A stretch of 64,000 nucleotides of DNA, taken from NCBI GenBank assembly GCA_020440825.1, contig JAGRNJ010000005.1, positions 44,926 through 108,925 on the forward strand. The letters run 5' to 3'. The position numbers and the translations under genes are program-made. Below are positions 18,926 to 64,000 of this stretch, one piece after another. The DNA is from Leptospiraceae bacterium. Its GTDB lineage: Bacteria > Spirochaetota > Leptospiria > Turneriellales > Turneriellaceae. The notes under the pieces are model-generated. The model saw nothing but the letters and a program-made list of their open reading frames with translations. It was not told where the DNA came from and did not search any database. Within the stretch, counting starts at the first letter, position 1. Each line of letters begins with the position of its first letter.

Positions 18926-19993
18926 TCAACTCTGGGGTGTGCCCTCTTTTAGTATTTTGAGCAGCCGTTTACGGGCTTTACGAAACGGCATATCGGCCTT
19001 CAAACCCGCAGCGTTCTTGTGCCCCCCCCCGCCAAATACCTTGGCGATCGCTGCCACATCGTAATCGCCCACCGAACGCAAAGAGCATTTCATTTTCCCG
19101 TCATCAGTTCTGGTCATCAATGCAGCCACGTTAGTTCCTTTAGTGGCCAGCAGCATATTGACAATACCCTCAGAAGCAGAATCACCAAGCTCGAGACCTT
19201 TCAGCATCGATGGGACCACTGTACCGGCCACAAACCCGGCTTTTTTATTGATAATGACCCGCTTAAGAATTTTGCGTAAATATTTAAGACGATCAACCGG
19301 ATGTGATTCATATAGAATGCGATAAATATAATCTGAATGAATTCCGAACGATATTAAATGTCCTGCAGCAATGTGGGTACGCAACGAAGTTTTGGGATAA
19401 CGAAAGTTGCCTGTATCGGCCACCAGACCGGCATACAATGCTTGTGCCGCAATAGCATTGACCGGTATCTTCATAAACTGGTAGAGATCCCAGATCATTT
19501 CTGCAGTTGCGCCATAGCTCGGGTCGACAAAAAACCGGGGGTCTTCGGGCAAAATATGATGATCAATGCTAGAGTATTCGCAACCGGCTGAGGTAAAGGC
19601 TTCGGCAACTGCGGCGCTGCGTTTCAATTCAGAGCTGTCGAGAATAAATACAAACCGTCCCGTTAAAAGTTGACGCAGGTCATCCGCCTTGTTTTCAAAA
19701 TCTTCAATATTCAATACTGAATTTTCGGGTACCATAAATCGCAAATATTCCGGTACAGCTTCATTGTTGAGAACCACCACATCTTTTCCCAAATGCAGCA
19801 GTAATTCCCGTAGTCCTAATTGGGAGCCAATGCCATCGGCATCTGCCGAGACATGAGTTGTGAGCAGAAATTTTTCGGTACCGGATATTTTTTGTGCAAT
19901 CTTGCCGAGTACCGGCGCAACCGGTATATAAGAAGCCATGACAGACTCTGCTATCTGCAACGATAATTGAGAGGTTCCCGCTTCTGCTTTCAT
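18926..19993 (-). CDS. nrnA: DHH-family phosphoesterase, NrnA type (oligoribonuclease / pAp phosphatase)
   Basis: 355 residues of the DHH-DHHA1 family. Metal-binding motifs: THVSADADGIGSQ (about 44-56, a variant of HxxPDxDAxGS), ILDSSELKR, the signature SSIDHH with ILPEDPRF after it, and the C-terminal DHHA1 motif GGGHKNAAG. Family members degrade 2-5-nt RNAs and dephosphorylate pAp in the cytoplasm. Relatives that cleave cyclic dinucleotides (GdpP) carry extra membrane, PAS and GGDEF domains, which are absent here. The annotated ATG gives an N-terminal extension of about 25 residues; the next ATG (19939) is an alternative start. A MITE-like element lies just upstream. Confidence 0.88.
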   Translation of the reverse strand: MKAEAGTSQLSLQIAESVMASYIPVAPVLGKIAQKISGTEKFLLTTHVSADADGIGSQLGLRELLLHLGKDVVVLNNEAVPEYLRFMVPENSVLNIEDFENKADDLRQLLTGRFVFILDSSELKRSAAVAEAFTSAGCEYSSIDHHILPEDPRFFVDPSYGATAEMIWDLYQFMKIPVNAIAAQALYAGLVADTGNFRYPKTSLRTHIAAGHLISFGIHSDYIYRILYESHPVDRLKYLRKILKRVIINKKAGFVAGTVVPSMLKGLELGDSASEGIVNMLLATKGTNVAALMTRTDDGKMKCSLRSVGDYDVAAIAKVFGGGGHKNAAGLKADMPFRKARKRLLKILKEGTPQS

Positions 19994-20362: not shown

Positions 20363-23300
20363 ATGGCGGATAAAAACCAGACATTAACCCTCGACGAAAC
20401 AGAAAATGATTCATTTATCATCGAATTTGATGAAGATGAAGGTATGCAGCCGCCTTCTCTCGATGATGTTGAAGAGAATCTGGTAATTCAGGAAAGCGAA
20501 TCTGCTGAAAATGCCCCAGAAACCGCAATCAATGAAGAAGAATCTTCCTGGGTAGATGAAATCATCTACTCTGAAGATATGGAACCTGATGAACCTGAAG
20601 CTGACCAGCTCGATGAAATGCTCGGTGCAGCTCCCGATGAAGACGCAGATCTGCCGAGCAGCGATGCTGATCTGTTGCGAGAGGCAAATGAAGAGCTTGC
20701 AGAATTGCCTCCGGTTCCTCAGAAAATTCAGATTCCAGAAATAGATCTGGATGATGAGTTCGATCTGCTTTCTCCCGAAGATGATGAAATACTTTCCCTG
20801 CAAGATGAAGATTCAGCCGCTCAGGTCAAAAATAGCGCATCTGTTTTACTTAAGAATACAAATGAAACAGAAGAGGACACCGATGTTATTACCAGTGAGC
20901 CGGTAGACCTCGATGATGATGACGGGCCTATAGCTCTGTCAGACGACGAACTTGACAATATTCTTGCAGACAGCGACGAAGAAACTTCGAGTGAAGAAAC
21001 GTCAATGGAACCTCCCATTGAATTGACCAATGATAAAACCTATTCTGAGCCCATTGAAGTGATTGATGAATCGTTCAGCGAGCTGACTGGCGAAGAAGAT
21101 GATTTTTTTAATGATGATGCTGAAGACCAGCCAATTGCGCTTTCAGATGACGAACTTGAAAATATAAGTCTTGAATCTCAGGTAGATGACTCCCCCTCTA
21201 CCCCGACCCCAACAACCTCAGGGACCACCGAAGAAGAAGATATTATTTTACCGGCTGCCTATACCGATGAGACTTCTGCATCTGCCATTACCGACAGTGA
21301 AGAAGACTATTCTCTACCTGAAGATTCTACGCCCATTGAAGAACTCTCTGATGATTCAGGTGATTCTGATTTTTTTGATGACGCAGATGAAGACGGCCCA
21401 ATTGCTTTGTCTGACGATGAACTCGACAATATTCTGGCAGACGCAGATCAAGACTCTGAAACAGAGATAAACAGGGAACCAACTGGCAATACTGCTGTTG
21501 AGACCGACGATTCACCAGACCGGCAATCTGCATTCGATCAAACAAGTGCAAATGCCGAGCCCGACTTTTTTGACGATGAAGAAGACGATGGGCCCATTGC
21601 CTTATCAGATGATGAATTAGACAACATCATGGCAGATGCAAATGACGAGCACCCTGTTGAACATGCCGGCGAAATGTTCGAGACTGCCGACCCCGAAGAA
21701 AATGAGAACGACATACATTCCTCAGGCGAAGAGTCAGATACCCTTCAAGCAGGGACAGACGAAACAGATTTTTTTACAGACAATGAAGATGATGGGCCAA
21801 TCGCACTCTCAGATGATGAACTGGATAATATTGTCGCCGATGCAAGCGAAGAAGCGGATGAGGATGCCAGCAGCGAGAGTACAGATTTTGATTCAATTGA
21901 AGATATTTCTTCTGAACAGAATCTTGATTCAGAAAAGGATATTTCAGCTGAATCGGGTAGCAGTATTTCAGAAGACCTGGAAGACGAAGGTCCTATAGCC
22001 CTGTCTGATGATGAGCTCGACAATATAATCTCAGACACTGACGACTCTCTGGCCATTGAACAGTCTGGCGAAGAACCGCCCGAATGGGAGACAGAAGATC
22101 AAAATACAGAGCAGCAGGCGCAAAGCACAGCCAGCGATGATTTTTTTACTGCTACTGACGATGAAGAAGATGGGCCCATTGCCTTGTCTGATGATGAACT
22201 CGACAATATTATCTCAGATGCCGATAACTCTGTAGCCGTTGAACAGACAGGCGAAGAACCACCCGAATGGGAAACTGAAAACGAAGATCAAACTGAATTA
22301 TCTGAAGGCGAATCACCGAGCGATGATTTTTTTAGCCAATCAGATGACACAGAAGATGATGAACCGATTGCACTGTCCGATGATGAACTGGATAATATCG
22401 TTGCTGAACCGGAAGTAAATACACAGACTTTTGAAGAAACTGACACTCCCCTCTCAAGTCTGGCAGAAACGGAAAATACAGATATAGAAGAAGATATTGC
22501 CTCAGGTGATGAAGACGAAGACTTCTTCAATGATTCTGATGACGATGAGACCATTGCCCTGTCAGATGATGAACTGAACAATATTACTATTGAAGATGAA
22601 TCGGCACTTGACGAGACAGCCGAAGAAACCGATGCTTTAGAAGAACCTTCAACCTCGGGCTCAGATTTTTTTACCGATTCAGAAGAAGAAGATGATGATG
22701 AACCGATCGCACTTTCTGATGACGAACTTGATAACATAATCACCGATGGTGAAGAAGCCATTGAAATGAGTGGTGAAGAACCACCAGAATGGGAAACGGA
22801 ATCTGACACTACTGATGTAGAAAACGAAGACGATGAACCTGTAGCCCTCTCAAATGATGAGCTCGACAATATTCTCGGTGATACCGATAGCGAAGAAAAT
22901 GCGGTCGAGATGACAGGTGAAGAACCGCCAGAATGGGAACACGAGACTGAAGATGCAGATTCGAGCCCTGAAGATTTCTTCACCGACGAAAATGATGAAG
23001 GGCCCATTGCCCTGTCAGATGATGAACTCGACAATATCATAGAAGAAGCCGGGGTAGAAGAAGCCCTGCCAGATCAAATTGAAGAATCCGCTATTGGCGA
23101 AGATGGCGAAGAACTGGTACCCCCTTCTGATCTGGTAGACGAAACCCCGATAGAATTGACCGAACCTGATTCGTCAGAGACAGAAGAAGAAACCAGTAAG
23201 CCGAATCAGGAAACAATAGATCTTGATTTGCACCCTGCGGTTCTCAAATCAGAAGCCGAAGACCTGGAACCTGCAGTATTCGAAGAAAACCTGGAAAGTG

Positions 23301-23629
23301 CTGAACTCGAGTTTATTGACAGTGAAACGCCATCTTCTGAAGAGCAAACGCCCGAAACTGAAATCCCGCCTGAAGTTTCAGACGATTCAACAGTTGAAGA
23401 AATTGCTGAACCTCAGCTTGCATCTGCAGAACCTGAATCTTCAGAATCTGCCCCTCAAGCAGAACAGACAGAAGAAGTAAAAGAAACCCCCAGCCGAACA
23501 GAATTGCGTGAAATGATTGGTTATCTCGATAACCTGCTGGGCGAATTGCCTGATCCTGTTATTGAAAAATTTGCCCAGTCTGACTATTTCAAACTCTATC
23601 AGAAAGTAATGGAGAAACTGGGACTCTAA
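20363..23629 (+). CDS. Very acidic repeat protein, 12 copies of an IALSDDELDNI-type motif
   Basis: 1088 residues, dominated by Asp, Glu and Ser, with no signal peptide or membrane segment. Between about residues 188 and 893 it carries 12 copies of the motif GPIALSDDELDNI, usually preceded by FF and an acidic run (DFFTDNEDD), spaced on average about 63 residues. Four linkers also carry SGEEPPEWE. The repeats are probably short linear binding motifs in a disordered chain. The last ~48 residues (TELREMIGYLDNLLGELPDP through VMEKLGL) look folded and helical; I recall similar tails on spirochaete proteins, but cannot name a characterised one. The next gene follows after 5 bases. Because the repeats differ in synonymous codons, they are old, not a recent slippage product. 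Confidence 0.85.
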   Translation: MADKNQTLTLDETENDSFIIEFDEDEGMQPPSLDDVEENLVIQESESAENAPETAINEEESSWVDEIIYSEDMEPDEPEADQLDEMLGAAPDEDADLPSSDADLLREANEELAELPPVPQKIQIPEIDLDDEFDLLSPEDDEILSLQDEDSAAQVKNSASVLLKNTNETEEDTDVITSEPVDLDDDDGPIALSDDELDNILADSDEETSSEETSMEPPIELTNDKTYSEPIEVIDESFSELTGEEDDFFNDDAEDQPIALSDDELENISLESQVDDSPSTPTPTTSGTTEEEDIILPAAYTDETSASAITDSEEDYSLPEDSTPIEELSDDSGDSDFFDDADEDGPIALSDDELDNILADADQDSETEINREPTGNTAVETDDSPDRQSAFDQTSANAEPDFFDDEEDDGPIALSDDELDNIMADANDEHPVEHAGEMFETADPEENENDIHSSGEESDTLQAGTDETDFFTDNEDDGPIALSDDELDNIVADASEEADEDASSESTDFDSIEDISSEQNLDSEKDISAESGSSISEDLEDEGPIALSDDELDNIISDTDDSLAIEQSGEEPPEWETEDQNTEQQAQSTASDDFFTATDDEEDGPIALSDDELDNIISDADNSVAVEQTGEEPPEWETENEDQTELSEGESPSDDFFSQSDDTEDDEPIALSDDELDNIVAEPEVNTQTFEETDTPLSSLAETENTDIEEDIASGDEDEDFFNDSDDDETIALSDDELNNITIEDESALDETAEETDALEEPSTSGSDFFTDSEEEDDDEPIALSDDELDNIITDGEEAIEMSGEEPPEWETESDTTDVENEDDEPVALSNDELDNILGDTDSEENAVEMTGEEPPEWEHETEDADSSPEDFFTDENDEGPIALSDDELDNIIEEAGVEEALPDQIEESAIGEDGEELVPPSDLVDETPIELTEPDSSETEEETSKPNQETIDLDLHPAVLKSEAEDLEPAVFEENLESAELEFIDSETPSSEEQTPETEIPPEVSDDSTVEEIAEPQLASAEPESSESAPQAEQTEEVKETPSRTELREMIGYLDNLLGELPDPVIEKFAQSDYFKLYQKVMEKLGL

Positions 23630-46668: not shown

Positions 46669-46755
46669 CCACTTCTTAATTTTTCTTTTTCAAGCTTTCC
46701 TATTTTTTTTTGCTTGATCGCTGCTGCCGTCCCTGAACTCTTCCACAAGATCAAT

Positions 46756-49269
46756 ATGCCTGCATTAACTGAAAAACCCGGTGCCAATCTGACTGCCCCA
46801 AATGGCTCAATTATAATGGATCAAGGTACAGATGCAAGTCATCTCGTGATTCTACAGCAGGGTAAAGTATCGTTACGATCTGCTGCTGTCGACTCTGATG
46901 GCCAAATCGATGCCAGTAAGTCAAAATATTTATTTACCATTTCTGCCCCGGCTATCTTGGGTGGAGCCGGTTTAACCACTGGCAATTCAACTTCTTACTC
47001 GGTTATTGCTGAAACGGATGCAGTGGTTTCAGTGTATCCTATGAATCAATCCCAGCTTGCAAAAACATTTCAAAGCAAGCCCAATATCGCGATTGTCTAT
47101 TTGAAGTCGATTGTACGGGAAGTGCTTGAAATTCAGAAAAAGAATATCCATATTTCAAATGCTCTCGAACAGCTGAAGAATTTTGAAAATTCAACAATTC
47201 TGGGTTACAGTGAAGTGAATCCTGACCCCTTTAAGAACGATGCCCAGGATACGGGGTTCAGTGACTCGGTGATTGAAATGGCCACTGAAATATTAGAGCG
47301 GTATAGAGAAAACGGAGGCCAGATTATTCGGCCTTTGAATCGTCAATTTTTAGAGTCTGACCATGCAAATGAACTCGACGATGGAATGCTGGGAGATTTG
47401 ACCGATATTGAAGACGATCTGGCTATCGTACGAAAGTTTACTGCACTTTCACCTCAAATTTTGGGTGCGATTGCCAAGAGCGACCCGGCTTTATTTCTAT
47501 CATTTGGTTCTAAACTGGCTAAATTTCTGGAATCATTCTTGCTTGAAGCAGATACTCAATTTCATAGAATGAACCAGATCATTGAAAGGTTACTCAAAGA
47601 TCAGAACTCCTGGCTTGAAAAGATCTCTCTGCAATGCGAGCTCTTTGAACAAAGGGTGATCGCTGCCGATGAAAAATCTGTAATCGCACTGACTGAATAT
47701 TTTGAGAACCATCTGCGTATTGCAATGAATGAGTTCTCTCGTGCATGGGCAATGCCATTGCCAGAATATAATAAAGCCAGTCTCGAGAAAATCAAAACAT
47801 TTGTACAAAAAGCCCTGAGTAGCGTTGAAGTAGCACCGGTGCCCGGCGAAAAAGCAGCACAGACTGCATCACTTTCTGTGAGCAGCGGGTTTGCCGAAGA
47901 AGTCAAAGATTCTATGCGCAAAATTGTCGAGTACTCGGGTCTCGAACAGGACAAATTTGCCACCCTGGTCGGGGCGATCAACAATCTCAAAGGTCTCAAA
48001 ACCCCTTTCGATGGGGATGATTCAGCCCGAAAACTGCGCAGACAAGCCAGTATGATCTTCTGGGAAATCTATGAAAAAGTAGCCTTGAGGCTGCTCTCTC
48101 AACGAGAAACCCCGACCAGATTGCATGAGATGTTTCTCAACTTTGGTATGCTCGATGAAACCTTCATGGATGAAGAACAACTGCAGTTTATTTATGAAAA
48201 TGCAGGCAGGCAAACATCAAAGTATCCTTTGCATACCCCTCTCGAATGGTTAACCAAGATTTATAACAAAGAAGTCCCGACTTCAATCAATGAACTCGGG
48301 GCCAGCTTTCTCGATATTTTACGACAAGACCCCGATAATCGGGGACAAAAATGGAAAAAACTGACTGACCTGCCCGCAAACCTGTACACCAGTGAAGCAT
48401 TGCTCAAATGGGAAGTGCACAATTTTATGTTCCCGAATTCAAGGGTAACCTCGGGCAGCCCAATGACTTATCTGGCAATCTTGACCCGCTATCACATTAA
48501 CCAGAACATTGAAAACAGCCTTTTAACCAAACAGAAAATCGAAGAAGAAATTGACTTCGTGCTCGAACGTGATTTCGGAGCCTTTCATCGGGAAGTATTG
48601 TATACTAATGAAGAGAAAGGAATCAACCGCGAATTTGTTCGCAAACAAATTGCTCCTAACATCATATTGACCCCGACTGCAGGTTCTAAAATGCAATTCT
48701 GGCAAGATCGCGAAGGCAATGACAGGTTCTCACCCGGCAGAATTGCGTGCCCGCATATTGCTGCAGGTGATTTCACCAATATGTTGCACAAAGTCATTGC
48801 CATTCATCGCTGGGAGACAGTCAAGACAACCATGGGTCCCGACTGGAACAATATATCGGTCAACTCTCTTACCTCTGAATACACCGACTATGTTCAGTTT
48901 TTTCATAAAAACCGGGAACTTTCGCCTGAATTGAAAGAAAAAATTGCCACCGAAATGAAACGTTTCAGAGAAGATAGGGAACGTTTTGCAAACGACTATA
49001 CAATCTGGCTCAAATATGAATCTGAAGGTGTACAACGAATGAACAAAGTTGCGCGCCGATTATTCTGTAAGCATGTTCCATTCTCTAAAGCAATACGTGA
49101 AAAACTGGTTAGACAACCCGCCTTTGCAGACTTTATTGAAAAATCTAACAATATCCATAAAAAGAAAGCAAGGGAACTGCAACCAAGATATACCAAATAC
49201 GAGCGAGATAACGGTTCCCTGCCCGATGAGCTGCTCGATACATTGAAGTATTTCAATCTACAGTATTGA
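46756..49269 (+). CDS. Large protein with N-terminal cyclic-nucleotide-binding domain
   Basis: 837 residues from the ATG at 46756; a TTG 14 codons upstream is the other option. Residues about 5-125 have the cNMP-binding beta-roll rhythm (NGSIIMDQGTDASHLVILQQ then GKVSL, SAPAILGGAGLTTGNSTSYS, VIAETDAVVSVYP). The usual phosphate-binding cassette R is not evident, so ligand binding may be lost or changed. The remaining ~700 residues are alpha-helical, without membrane segments, and unlike any family I know. It lacks a helix-turn-helix, so it is not a CRP-type regulator. The stop overlaps the start of the PQQ-type dehydrogenase gene (TGATG). Confidence 0.75.
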   Translation: MPALTEKPGANLTAPNGSIIMDQGTDASHLVILQQGKVSLRSAAVDSDGQIDASKSKYLFTISAPAILGGAGLTTGNSTSYSVIAETDAVVSVYPMNQSQLAKTFQSKPNIAIVYLKSIVREVLEIQKKNIHISNALEQLKNFENSTILGYSEVNPDPFKNDAQDTGFSDSVIEMATEILERYRENGGQIIRPLNRQFLESDHANELDDGMLGDLTDIEDDLAIVRKFTALSPQILGAIAKSDPALFLSFGSKLAKFLESFLLEADTQFHRMNQIIERLLKDQNSWLEKISLQCELFEQRVIAADEKSVIALTEYFENHLRIAMNEFSRAWAMPLPEYNKASLEKIKTFVQKALSSVEVAPVPGEKAAQTASLSVSSGFAEEVKDSMRKIVEYSGLEQDKFATLVGAINNLKGLKTPFDGDDSARKLRRQASMIFWEIYEKVALRLLSQRETPTRLHEMFLNFGMLDETFMDEEQLQFIYENAGRQTSKYPLHTPLEWLTKIYNKEVPTSINELGASFLDILRQDPDNRGQKWKKLTDLPANLYTSEALLKWEVHNFMFPNSRVTSGSPMTYLAILTRYHINQNIENSLLTKQKIEEEIDFVLERDFGAFHREVLYTNEEKGINREFVRKQIAPNIILTPTAGSKMQFWQDREGNDRFSPGRIACPHIAAGDFTNMLHKVIAIHRWETVKTTMGPDWNNISVNSLTSEYTDYVQFFHKNRELSPELKEKIATEMKRFREDRERFANDYTIWLKYESEGVQRMNKVARRLFCKHVPFSKAIREKLVRQPAFADFIEKSNNIHKKKARELQPRYTKYERDNGSLPDELLDTLKYFNLQY

Positions 49270-60935: not shown

Positions 60936-63900
60936 GTGAATTTGATCAAGTATACCATTTTTAGTGCATTCTTGCTTGCGACTTCCTTTTTTACGAATAT
61001 TGGTGTATATGCCTCAGCTTGTACCGAGGTCGAAAAATCTTTTAAGGCACAGAATCCCGCTAAAGACAATTTAACTGCAGCAATTCTTGAGCTTTGGGTA
61101 AACAAAGGCAAAGTAAGCCATCCGGTAGATTTCCAGGCAAGACTCGGCTTTCTTGCCCTTGATGGCCAAACCTTTCAACTTCGCCAGCAGATGAATGCAT
61201 TGACCAAGGTTCAAAAAAATAGCATCGATACCGAAGTCTGGAAATATCTGGATGCTCGTGCCCGAATGCGTCCTCTCGATGATTTTCCGCCTTTGCCTGA
61301 AAAATTTCTTTTTCCGCAGGCAATTGAAAGAGTTCGCCAGAATGATCTGCGACGGGCATCCGTACTCTTATCATCCTTACTCAACAACAAACGCGCCATG
61401 CAAGGAATTTCAGGAACCTATTTGTCGATACTTCAGTCAATTTACGCACTGACCCTGGAAACTGAAGAATACAACCTGGTTCGAAAAAAAATATTACAGG
61501 GAAAAATTGGCAAGATCATGGCGGATTGCTTTCATCTGCAACCAGATTTGCCCGTAACGGTAAAGACTGTTAAACCTTTATTAAAAGAAATGTCGTCTAC
61601 CATGGAAGCTGCCCGGGCAACTTCGGGAATTTTTGAATCTGGCAGTGCCGAAAACAAGATCAGAGTAGATTTTTATTATTCAGAGAATCTCGCATCGCAT
61701 TCGATTTATTCGGGAGATTCATGGATTTTGGGGTCTGACCAGGAAGGGGTTTTTTGGCCTTTAAATGAACGGGAGATTATGCGCACCCCGGCTGGAGTTT
61801 TGGCACTCGATACCATTCCTGTACATTTGAATGTCAGCTTTAATTTCGGTACATCGGGGGAGGGAAATCGTTTTAACTTTCGTTTCGATATCAGTGAAAA
61901 ACGAAATGAGAAACCAGAAATTCACACTCTACTCTCTCAAATAAATGCAATTCCCTTGACAATTTCCAAGACCCAGAATAAGATTACGATCTACCCCTAC
62001 TTTTCATCGACACCTTTTCCTGACTCTTCTTTGGAAATTGAACAAAGTCAAAATAGCCCTGCCTCAATCGTTATCCGTACAAACCAGAGCAAGAGTTCAA
62101 TCAGTTTTCGAGAGCTGCGTTTTAATATGCAGGCAAAGCCCTCCGTTGAAAAATTAATAAAAGGCAAAAAAGTTCTCAAAACTGAAACAGGGTTCACTCG
62201 ACCAGTTTATGAAACGGCCAGTCTGCGGCGATTTCTGGTAAACTCAGACACCGCTTCTGAAAACAGTTCTGGGCAGATCTTTCAGGAACTGCAGGCAGAT
62301 CTGCGTTCTGCACGGTTTCCCAACCCGGCTTTCTATCAAAAACTGGCCGAAAAATATCACTCTCGTTTGAACAATGAAGCGCTTGATTTCCATTTTGATG
62401 TTGCACGACTTTATTCTCTGGCTTATAACCATAATAAAGCGGTACAGGTACTTGAAGAAGCATTTGCGCTTTCAGAAAGCAGAGATGAAAAGGGTGAAAT
62501 CAAGCGCGGCTTCTCAATGGTTTCAGACCCTGATCGGGAATATATCAATGCTCTGGTTATGACGGGAGATTATCGTAACGCTCTTGACTTTATCGACTTC
62601 AAATTGCGCAAGGCCCAGAAAGTCTACGATGTAAATGAAACCTATCTCATGGGAATCCAGAAAGCAGATATACTTACTCGTGCCTCCAGACCACAAGAAG
62701 CCCTGGAAACACTGACATCCATCCGCCTGCGTTTCTCTCACCCGGGTAATCTGAGCCTTACTCTGTCTGCAATGGAAGTGCAATTGGCCTCTTACCTGAT
62801 GAAAAATAAAGAAGCTGCTGCAGCCTTTACATACTGGGAAAACAAACGCAGAATTCTCTCAAAAGGGGATGACAATTTTCTGGCCATGCAAAAAGAATCT
62901 CTGCAAAGAGCGAGTGCAGCTGAAAGTAACCCGGTTCGCTTGAAGCATCCGCCGGTGCTTCCCGGTCAGGGCAAGAATTTTTGTGCACCAATTGCTCTCG
63001 AGTTTGCTCTTCGCGTTCTTGGTGATCAGAAAGTAACCCAGAAAGAAATTGCCGATAGCATGGGGACCAATGATGCCGGAACAAATTTTTCAAATATTCT
63101 CAGTTACTTGAAAGAGCGCAATGTACAGACCTCTGCTGCCGTTTTAAATATAGAGCAGGCTGCAGATTTACTGAAACGCGGATTACCGATTCTTACACTG
63201 CTTTGGCCCCCTGATTCTTCTATCGGACACATCAGTGTTCTTTTGGGAGTAGATGTACAGAAAAAAGTGTACTATTTTTATGAACCGGGGCTGGCTTTTT
63301 CAATGCTCGCGATTCATGAATCCGAATTGAAAAAATCTCAAATGATTGCCGGGTCTGTATTTTTGATTGTGGGAAACAATAACCGCGAAGTCAAAGCTCA
63401 TAAATCTGCAGAAGAAGTTCTCAAGTATCTCGATATCTACACCAGCGGCGCAGATGCCCAGGCGTTGCTCACTTCACTCGATGAAATTGCCGCACATGAT
63501 AAAAAAGAGGGTCTTACAGAGTTCCTGCTATTTCACAGATTAAATGCACTGCTGCGTTTATCGACCCAAAGCAAACTGACCCAGTTGCAGATGAACTATA
63601 TCAAATCAATTCTTAGCCAATGGGAACTTTCGATTCCCACAGGACTATCTTACCTCACTTACCGCTCGTTTGGTGACCTTGCTCTGCATGCCGGAAAAGT
63701 AGAACTGGCAGACAAAGTTTTTACAACCGGCCTGCAGGATAATCCCACAGATTTTCTTTCTTTAATTCGTAGTGCCGATCTTTCACTCCGCAAAGGGGAC
63801 AGTGATACTGCATTTACTTTAGCCGGCCGGGCCTTGCGTGACAGTGCTTCTCTGGGTTTATATCCCGGTTTGTTTGAGCAAATCATTGTGCGTTCTGCCC

Positions 63901-64000
63901 AGGTCAAGCTCGAGAAAAAAGATGTGCGCGGTGCCGTAGAAGCATTAATGACCATCACTGATTTTTCTACCTTAACCCCTCAATCTCGTCAGCTTATCAA
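60936..64000 (+). CDS. Secreted C39-peptidase-like protein with helical repeats, 3' end outside window
   Basis: An open frame of at least 1021 codons from GTG at 60936 to the window end, with AGGAG upstream. Signal peptide about 1-29 (NLIKYTIFSAFLLATSFFTN). Residues 30-660 are helical, partly TPR-like (EALDFHFDVARLYSLAYNHN, DPDREYINALVMTGDYRNAL). Residues about 675-790 form a peptidase-C39-like domain with nucleophile candidate Cys683 in GQGKNFCAPIALEFALRVLG and His765 in SIGHISVLLGVD; the usual Asp/Asn-Pro is replaced by Glu-Pro in FYEPG. Further TPR-like helices follow (LALHAGKVELADKVFTTGLQ). C39 domains process double-glycine leaders in ABC exporters; without membrane or ATPase domains, this one acts alone, probably in the periplasm. 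Substrate unknown. Confidence 0.85.
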   Translation, partial: MNLIKYTIFSAFLLATSFFTNIGVYASACTEVEKSFKAQNPAKDNLTAAILELWVNKGKVSHPVDFQARLGFLALDGQTFQLRQQMNALTKVQKNSIDTEVWKYLDARARMRPLDDFPPLPEKFLFPQAIERVRQNDLRRASVLLSSLLNNKRAMQGISGTYLSILQSIYALTLETEEYNLVRKKILQGKIGKIMADCFHLQPDLPVTVKTVKPLLKEMSSTMEAARATSGIFESGSAENKIRVDFYYSENLASHSIYSGDSWILGSDQEGVFWPLNEREIMRTPAGVLALDTIPVHLNVSFNFGTSGEGNRFNFRFDISEKRNEKPEIHTLLSQINAIPLTISKTQNKITIYPYFSSTPFPDSSLEIEQSQNSPASIVIRTNQSKSSISFRELRFNMQAKPSVEKLIKGKKVLKTETGFTRPVYETASLRRFLVNSDTASENSSGQIFQELQADLRSARFPNPAFYQKLAEKYHSRLNNEALDFHFDVARLYSLAYNHNKAVQVLEEAFALSESRDEKGEIKRGFSMVSDPDREYINALVMTGDYRNALDFIDFKLRKAQKVYDVNETYLMGIQKADILTRASRPQEALETLTSIRLRFSHPGNLSLTLSAMEVQLASYLMKNKEAAAAFTYWENKRRILSKGDDNFLAMQKESLQRASAAESNPVRLKHPPVLPGQGKNFCAPIALEFALRVLGDQKVTQKEIADSMGTNDAGTNFSNILSYLKERNVQTSAAVLNIEQAADLLKRGLPILTLLWPPDSSIGHISVLLGVDVQKKVYYFYEPGLAFSMLAIHESELKKSQMIAGSVFLIVGNNNREVKAHKSAEEVLKYLDIYTSGADAQALLTSLDEIAAHDKKEGLTEFLLFHRLNALLRLSTQSKLTQLQMNYIKSILSQWELSIPTGLSYLTYRSFGDLALHAGKVELADKVFTTGLQDNPTDFLSLIRSADLSLRKGDSDTAFTLAGRALRDSASLGLYPGLFEQIIVRSAQVKLEKKDVRGAVEALMTITDFSTLTPQSRQLI

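What the first reader, a model, noticed from the sequence alone, without database searches (positions are those of the whole stretch)
60936..64000. Long secreted C39-peptidase-like protein between helical repeats, cut by the window edge
At least 1021 codons: signal peptide, helical repeats, a C39-like domain with Cys683 and His765, then more TPR-like helices. C39 domains are normally fused to ABC transporters. A free periplasmic form embedded in TPR-like repeats, next to a DUF1566-like lipoprotein, could be a new processing or scaffold system. The usual Asp/Asn before Pro is Glu.
Basis: partly seen in the sequence, partly recalled or inferred. Interest (0 to 1): 0.7.

Follow-up and report, generated by a model that had tools for sequence, protein, structure and literature searches.

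The report
Secreted C39 peptidase inside TPR repeats
A spirochaete bacterium makes a large exported protein in which an apparently intact cysteine-protease domain sits between protein-binding repeats; it is a real but rare gene that probably trims some unknown cell-envelope protein, built from known parts in an unusual order.

Summary
The gene starts at 60936 (GTG behind AGCAGGAG) and ends 79 bases past the window edge; the full product is 1047 aa.

The C39 module passes Pfam's cut-off for PF13529 (Peptidase_C39_2) in this protein and in both full-length relatives. Cys683, His765 and Glu783-Pro784 are invariant. Sequence alignment puts Cys683 on Cys90 of PeiR and His765/Glu783 on the His/Asp of AvrRpt2. 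A model of the module matches C39 structures (ComA, PCAT1, the HlyB C39-like domain). It is therefore probably a working cysteine peptidase, with Glu where related proteins have Asp.

Free and exported C39-type peptidases are already known (FapD, PeiR). PF13529 is described as mostly single-domain. No double-glycine precursor lies nearby, and the DUF1566/Lcl_C neighbour is not shared by the two relatives, so "a new processing system" is not supported.

The architecture occurs in only three genomes, across two lineages of Spirochaetota. I read it as a substrate-holding, extracytoplasmic peptidase. The substrate is unknown.

The parts
60936..64000 (+). the gene (1021 of 1047 codons lie in the window; stop 79 bases beyond the edge)
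   Evidence: open frame, GTG behind AGCAGGAG, end read in L002
60936..61019 (+). export signal, aa 1-28 (A26-S27-A28 before C29)
   Evidence: hydrophobic stretch near residues 8-19, similar N-termini in both relatives; cleavage site inferred by eye
61071..61634 (+). N-terminal helical region, aa 46-233
   Evidence: secondary structure (model confidence partly low); weak TPR match only in relative L008
61656..62111 (+). beta-rich region, aa 241-392, no known family
   Evidence: strands, low confidence; no match; invariant FW-E-M and FR-L-F residues
62265..62918 (+). middle TPR-like helices, aa 444-661
   Evidence: (weak TPR / ARM_TT21)
62931..63380 (+). C39-type papain-like peptidase module, aa 666-815
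   Evidence: PF13529 above cut-off in all three family members; fold match to C39 domains
62982..62984 (+). Cys683, predicted nucleophile
   Evidence: invariant; aligned with Cys90 of PeiR
63228..63230 (+). His765, predicted general base
   Evidence: invariant; aligned with the corresponding His of AvrRpt2
63282..63284 (+). Glu783 before Pro784, predicted third catalytic residue in place of Asp/Asn
   Evidence: invariant in the family; Asp in C39_2 proteins of related genomes
63402..64000 (+). C-terminal TPR helices, from aa 823 on
   Evidence: (TPR_19 above cut-off in relative L007)

Best explanation
It is an exported cysteine peptidase of the Peptidase_C39_2 (PF13529) kind that works in the periplasm or at the cell envelope. 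Shown: the gene is intact, the domain is a C39-type papain-like fold by profile and model, the Cys and His are conserved at the catalytic positions, and TPR helices lie on both sides. Inferred: the TPR arms and the beta-rich region hold a protein partner or substrate and feed an extended stretch of it into the cleft, where Cys683 attacks the peptide bond, His765 acts as base and Glu783 orients the His. The likely outcome is limited processing of an envelope or secreted protein, comparable to FapD in amyloid export, rather than removal of double-glycine leaders in the cytosol. The substrate is not known.
For: PF13529 above cut-off in all three family members, best 1.2e-8 for the module alone. 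C683, H765, G771 and E783-P784 invariant although overall identity is only about 25%. The C39 module is the most conserved part: 40-45% identity to this protein against 17-25% in the other regions after the signal, with 35 invariant of 150 positions. Fold match to ComA peptidase (5xe8, TM 0.73 by target), the double-glycine-motif protease of an AMS/PCAT transporter (6mpz, 0.65), the HlyB-type C39-like domain (3zua, 0.64) and PCAT1 peptidase (7n87, 0.55). Cys683 aligned on PeiR Cys90, the residue changed in entry 8z4n (PeiR-C90A). TPR matches in sequence and fold. Precedent: FapD is periplasmic and its C38A mutant abolishes secretion (PMC5557850).
Against: No substrate, partner or conserved neighbour was found. 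Only three members are known, so conservation rests on three sequences. The residue at the usual oxyanion-Gln place is Q, E and Q in the three members, and the third residue is Glu; both could mean altered or reduced activity. Foldseek E-values for isolated C39 domains are modest (2e-3 to 6e-3; the two better ones, 6e-5 and 4e-4, are to whole transporters at low TM), and no coordinates could be inspected, so the Cys-His distance was not measured.
Confidence: 0.6

Rival explanations
1. A cell-wall enzyme: the C39 module cuts an isopeptide or peptide bond in peptidoglycan (or another wall peptide), as PeiR cuts pseudomurein, and the repeats anchor it in a wall-synthesis or wall-lysis complex.
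For: The best solved sequence relative of the module is the endoisopeptidase PeiR, E = 7e-4 with the C39-only profile, also found by fold. Export signal.
Against: No wall-binding domain was recognised. TPR arms point to protein rather than glycan binding. PeiR has pseudomurein-binding repeats (PMC6189367), which are absent here.
Confidence: 0.17
2. A non-catalytic or weakly catalytic scaffold: the C39 fold is used to bind peptides, as in the C39-like domain of HlyB, within a TPR scaffold.
For: The HlyB complex is the best fold match by E-value. The oxyanion Gln is not strictly kept and the third catalytic residue is Glu.
Against: Cys and His are invariant over deep divergence, and the C39 module is the most conserved part of the protein, which a mere binding fold would not require.
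Confidence: 0.13
3. A peptide-bond-forming or acyl-transferring enzyme (ligase, transglutaminase-like, or BtrH-like acyltransferase) using the same Cys-His site.
For: Related papain-like families close to C39 include acyltransferases such as BtrH_N (PMC10318531).
Against: No match to BtrH_N, transglutaminase or other transferase families.
Confidence: 0.06
4. A leader peptidase partner of an ABC exporter that removes double-glycine leaders, as first suggested.
For: The C39 fold is shared with PCAT1 and ComA.
Against: The protein has an export signal, no fused ABC exporter, none evident among the neighbouring frames and no credible double-glycine precursor in the window or the loci of the three members.
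Confidence: 0.04

Closest known systems
Peptidase_C39_2 (PF13529)
   Same: Passes the family cut-off in all three members; same Cys / His / acidic-Pro order.
   Different: Described as mainly single-domain peptidases (PMC10318531); here embedded in a 1000-residue exported TPR protein, with Glu in place of Asp.
FapD, periplasmic C39 peptidase of Pseudomonas amyloid export
   Same: Sec-exported, transporter-free C39-type peptidase (PMC5557850).
   Different: FapD is encoded in the fap operon; the passages read describe no TPR arms or beta-rich region for it, and nothing like the fap operon was noticed beside this gene.
C39_PA2778_fam (NF033920)
   Same: From memory, an exported C39-plus-TPR family; the last 100 positions of its model behaved like a TPR model in this genome.
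   Different: No match of this gene to the model; the order appears to be C39 then TPR there, TPR-C39-TPR here.
Peptidase_C39 of PCAT/ComA-type exporters (PF03412)
   Same: Same fold by Foldseek.
   Different: Below the PF03412 cut-off (14.4 against 22 bits); no ABC transporter parts; exported.
PeiR pseudomurein endoisopeptidase
   Same: Best solved sequence relative of the module; Cys90 aligned with Cys683.
   Different: Viral lytic enzyme with wall-binding repeats (PMC6189367).

Membership tests
Peptidase_C39_2 (PF13529) | profile score above the curated cut-off (24 bits) | tested here: met
   26.2, 26.4 and 30.6 bits in the three members (26.2 for the window part; the others); 31.3 for the module alone
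Peptidase_C39_2 (PF13529) | catalytic Cys and His at the papain-type positions | tested here: met
   invariant C683 and H765; aligned with PeiR Cys90 and with the AvrRpt2 His
Peptidase_C39_2 (PF13529) | third catalytic Asp/Asn before Pro | tested here: not met
   Glu in all three members, Asp in C39_2 proteins of related genomes. This is a usual, not a required, feature of the profile family: the profile cut-off is still passed, so membership rests on the profile and the Cys/His pair
Peptidase_C39_2 (PF13529) | peptidase activity | not testable with these tools
   needs purified protein
Peptidase_C39 of bacteriocin exporters (PF03412) | profile score above cut-off (22 bits) | tested here: not met
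   14.4 bits for the whole protein, 18.7 for the module
Peptidase_C39 of bacteriocin exporters (PF03412) | fusion to an ABC transporter | tested here: not met
   flanks are helical repeats; no transporter domain
Peptidase_C39 of bacteriocin exporters (PF03412) | double-glycine leader substrates encoded nearby | tested here: not met
   pattern search of small frames in the window and the loci of the three members; the whole genome was not searched
C39_PA2778_fam (NF033920) | model score above cut-off (150 bits) | tested here: not met
   no hit to this gene
FapD | located in a fap operon with amyloid and FapF-type genes | tested here: not met
   neighbours are an Lcl_C lipoprotein-like gene and a DUF4013-like membrane protein
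TPR repeat protein | TPR repeats by profile or fold | tested here: met
   TPR_19 above cut-off in relative L007; TPR folds among the top matches; matches in this protein itself are below cut-off

The most novel reading that the evidence does not exclude
A small, previously unnamed family of exported 'clamp' peptidases in Spirochaetota, in which a C39 module with a Cys-His-Glu site is inserted between TPR arms and a new beta-rich domain, and processes a specific envelope substrate in a pathway not yet described.
Probability: 0.25. Interest if true: 0.5.

Novelty: new variant of a known kind. Interest (0 to 1): 0.32.

Why it matters
It adds a rare, conserved architecture to the set of exported C39-type peptidases, few of which have a known substrate outside bacteriocin export, and gives a concrete mutable site (Cys683) to test. 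On its own it does not overturn any view of C39 enzymes.

Tried and rejected
Relatives outside the three genomes: none in plasmids, none in viral contigs, only the same two loci in GTDB contigs (that scan used two short peptide patterns, so absence is not proven). A weak hit in G084 (L005) overlaps, antisense, a gene that looks like an electron-transfer flavoprotein gene and was rejected. Hits in G184 and G193 cover only the TPR part. A search with the C39-plus-TPR part alone gave many TPR-only hits and a few small C39_2 proteins, no further member of the family. Many PF13529 partial hits in 800-aa frames: those opened (L030, L042, L048) look by eye like papain/C1-type proteins, the first two with fibronectin-type repeats, and are not relatives. 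Possible pairing of C39-like and Lcl_C genes on contig C113: not a matching arrangement. Idea that the beta region is a LolA-like fold: no support from Pfam or PDB sequence searches. Defence-system library: no match. The full-length model has low confidence (mean pLDDT 51.5), so its matches were used only for the TPR part.

Full report
What is there. The open frame reported at 60936-64000 is real. The window is part of a 109858-base contig of a draft genome (3.78 Mb, 173 contigs, 88% complete), so the missing end could be read. The stop lies 79 bases past the window edge and the product is 1047 aa. The GTG start is preceded by AGCAGGAG. A genome of the same phylum is the record named 'Spirochaetia bacterium', so the organism belongs to Spirochaetota; a closer placement was not established.

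Anatomy. Residues 1-28 are an export signal by eye; hydrophobicity gives a similar stretch in both relatives. C29 follows A26-S27-A28 and is matched by a Cys in one relative but not in the other, so lipid attachment is undecided. In the full-length model residues 46-233 are helical, about 241-392 beta-rich, 444-661 helical, 666-815 mixed, and 823 onward helical. The beta-rich region matches no Pfam family or solved sequence convincingly. The C-terminal helices are TPR: TPR_19 exceeds its cut-off in one relative, the profile hits TPR proteins of the PDB, and TPR folds are among the best fold matches.

The C39 module. Pfam PF13529 is passed by all three family members (26.2, 26.4 and 30.6 bits, cut-off 24), and the module alone scores 31.3 bits. 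PF03412, the exporter form, is not passed. A separate model of residues 660-1021 has pLDDT of about 62-89 over the module. It matches ComA peptidase, the double-glycine-motif protease of an AMS/PCAT transporter, PCAT1 peptidase, a HlyB-type C39-like domain and PeiR. In that model Cys683 lies just before the first helix of the module, His765 at the start of a long strand and Glu783 after the next strand, the order expected of papain-like enzymes (the expectation is general knowledge). Alignment with PDB sequences puts Cys683 on PeiR Cys90 and His765/Glu783 on the His/Asp of AvrRpt2. C39_2 proteins of related genomes have Asp where this family has Glu.

Relatives. A search of 100 related genomes found two full-length relatives of 981 and 1062 aa. 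A profile of the three found no others in 393 genomes of the phylum or in 46 genomes of the second lineage's order. Plasmids and viral contigs held none, and a pattern-limited scan of GTDB contigs returned the same two. Overall identity is 24-26%, but the C39 module keeps 40-45% identity to this protein and 35 invariant positions of 150. C683, H765, G771, E783 and P784 are invariant. The residue at the usual oxyanion Gln is Q, E and Q.

Context. In this genome the gene lies 22 bases after an Lcl_C (formerly DUF1566, from memory) lipoprotein-like gene and just before a DUF4013-like membrane protein that narrowly misses its Pfam cut-off. Neither neighbour occurs beside the two relatives, and Lcl_C has several other copies in the genome. 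The relative in G003 shares two genes of the wider window (a DHH-type gene and a cyclic-nucleotide-binding-type gene, by eye), which suggests vertical inheritance with loss. Small frames with double-glycine leaders were sought in the window and in the loci of all three members; the single match is not credible.

How it most likely works. Shown: intact gene, C39-type domain, conserved catalytic residues, TPR arms. Inferred: export to the periplasm, binding of a protein partner by the arms, and limited proteolysis at the Cys-His-Glu site. FapD shows that such a free periplasmic C39 peptidase can be essential for a secretion pathway through its catalytic Cys (PMC5557850). PeiR shows that a C39 module can cut a wall peptide (PMC6189367). 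The choice between protein and wall substrate is open, with protein favoured because of the TPR arms.

Novelty. The parts are known; the arrangement (signal, helices, beta region, TPR, C39, TPR) with Glu in the site is not named in Pfam, NCBIfam or PADLOC as searched. It is not a member of the PA2778 family. I file it as a new variant of a known kind, of modest interest.

Noticed in passing
window 20363-23629: A 1088-aa very acidic protein with many copies of a motif like DDGPIALSDDELDNI; not analysed.
   Followed up: no
window 18926-19993 and 46714-49269; L007 2766-3848 and 9338-11854: A DHH-type gene and a cyclic-nucleotide-binding-type gene flank the relative in L007 within 12 kb and both lie elsewhere in this window, so the region looks partly syntenic but rearranged.
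   Followed up: partly
L002 9800-9859: The contig ends in a repeat-like sequence with an inverted repeat (CCTCTGAAAAAGT...ACTTTTTCAGAGG), possibly the reason for the assembly break.
   Followed up: no
L028 (G026:C1:1390775-1391185): A C39_2 match inside a 4821-codon open frame in a related genome.
   Followed up: no
L073 1315-1986: A 223-aa C39_2-like protein with an N-terminal membrane segment (by eye) in a distant spirochaete, perhaps another extracytoplasmic form.
   Followed up: partly
window 61014-61022: C29 directly after A26-S27-A28 could be a spirochaetal lipobox; a Cys at this place is conserved in one of two relatives only.
   Followed up: partly
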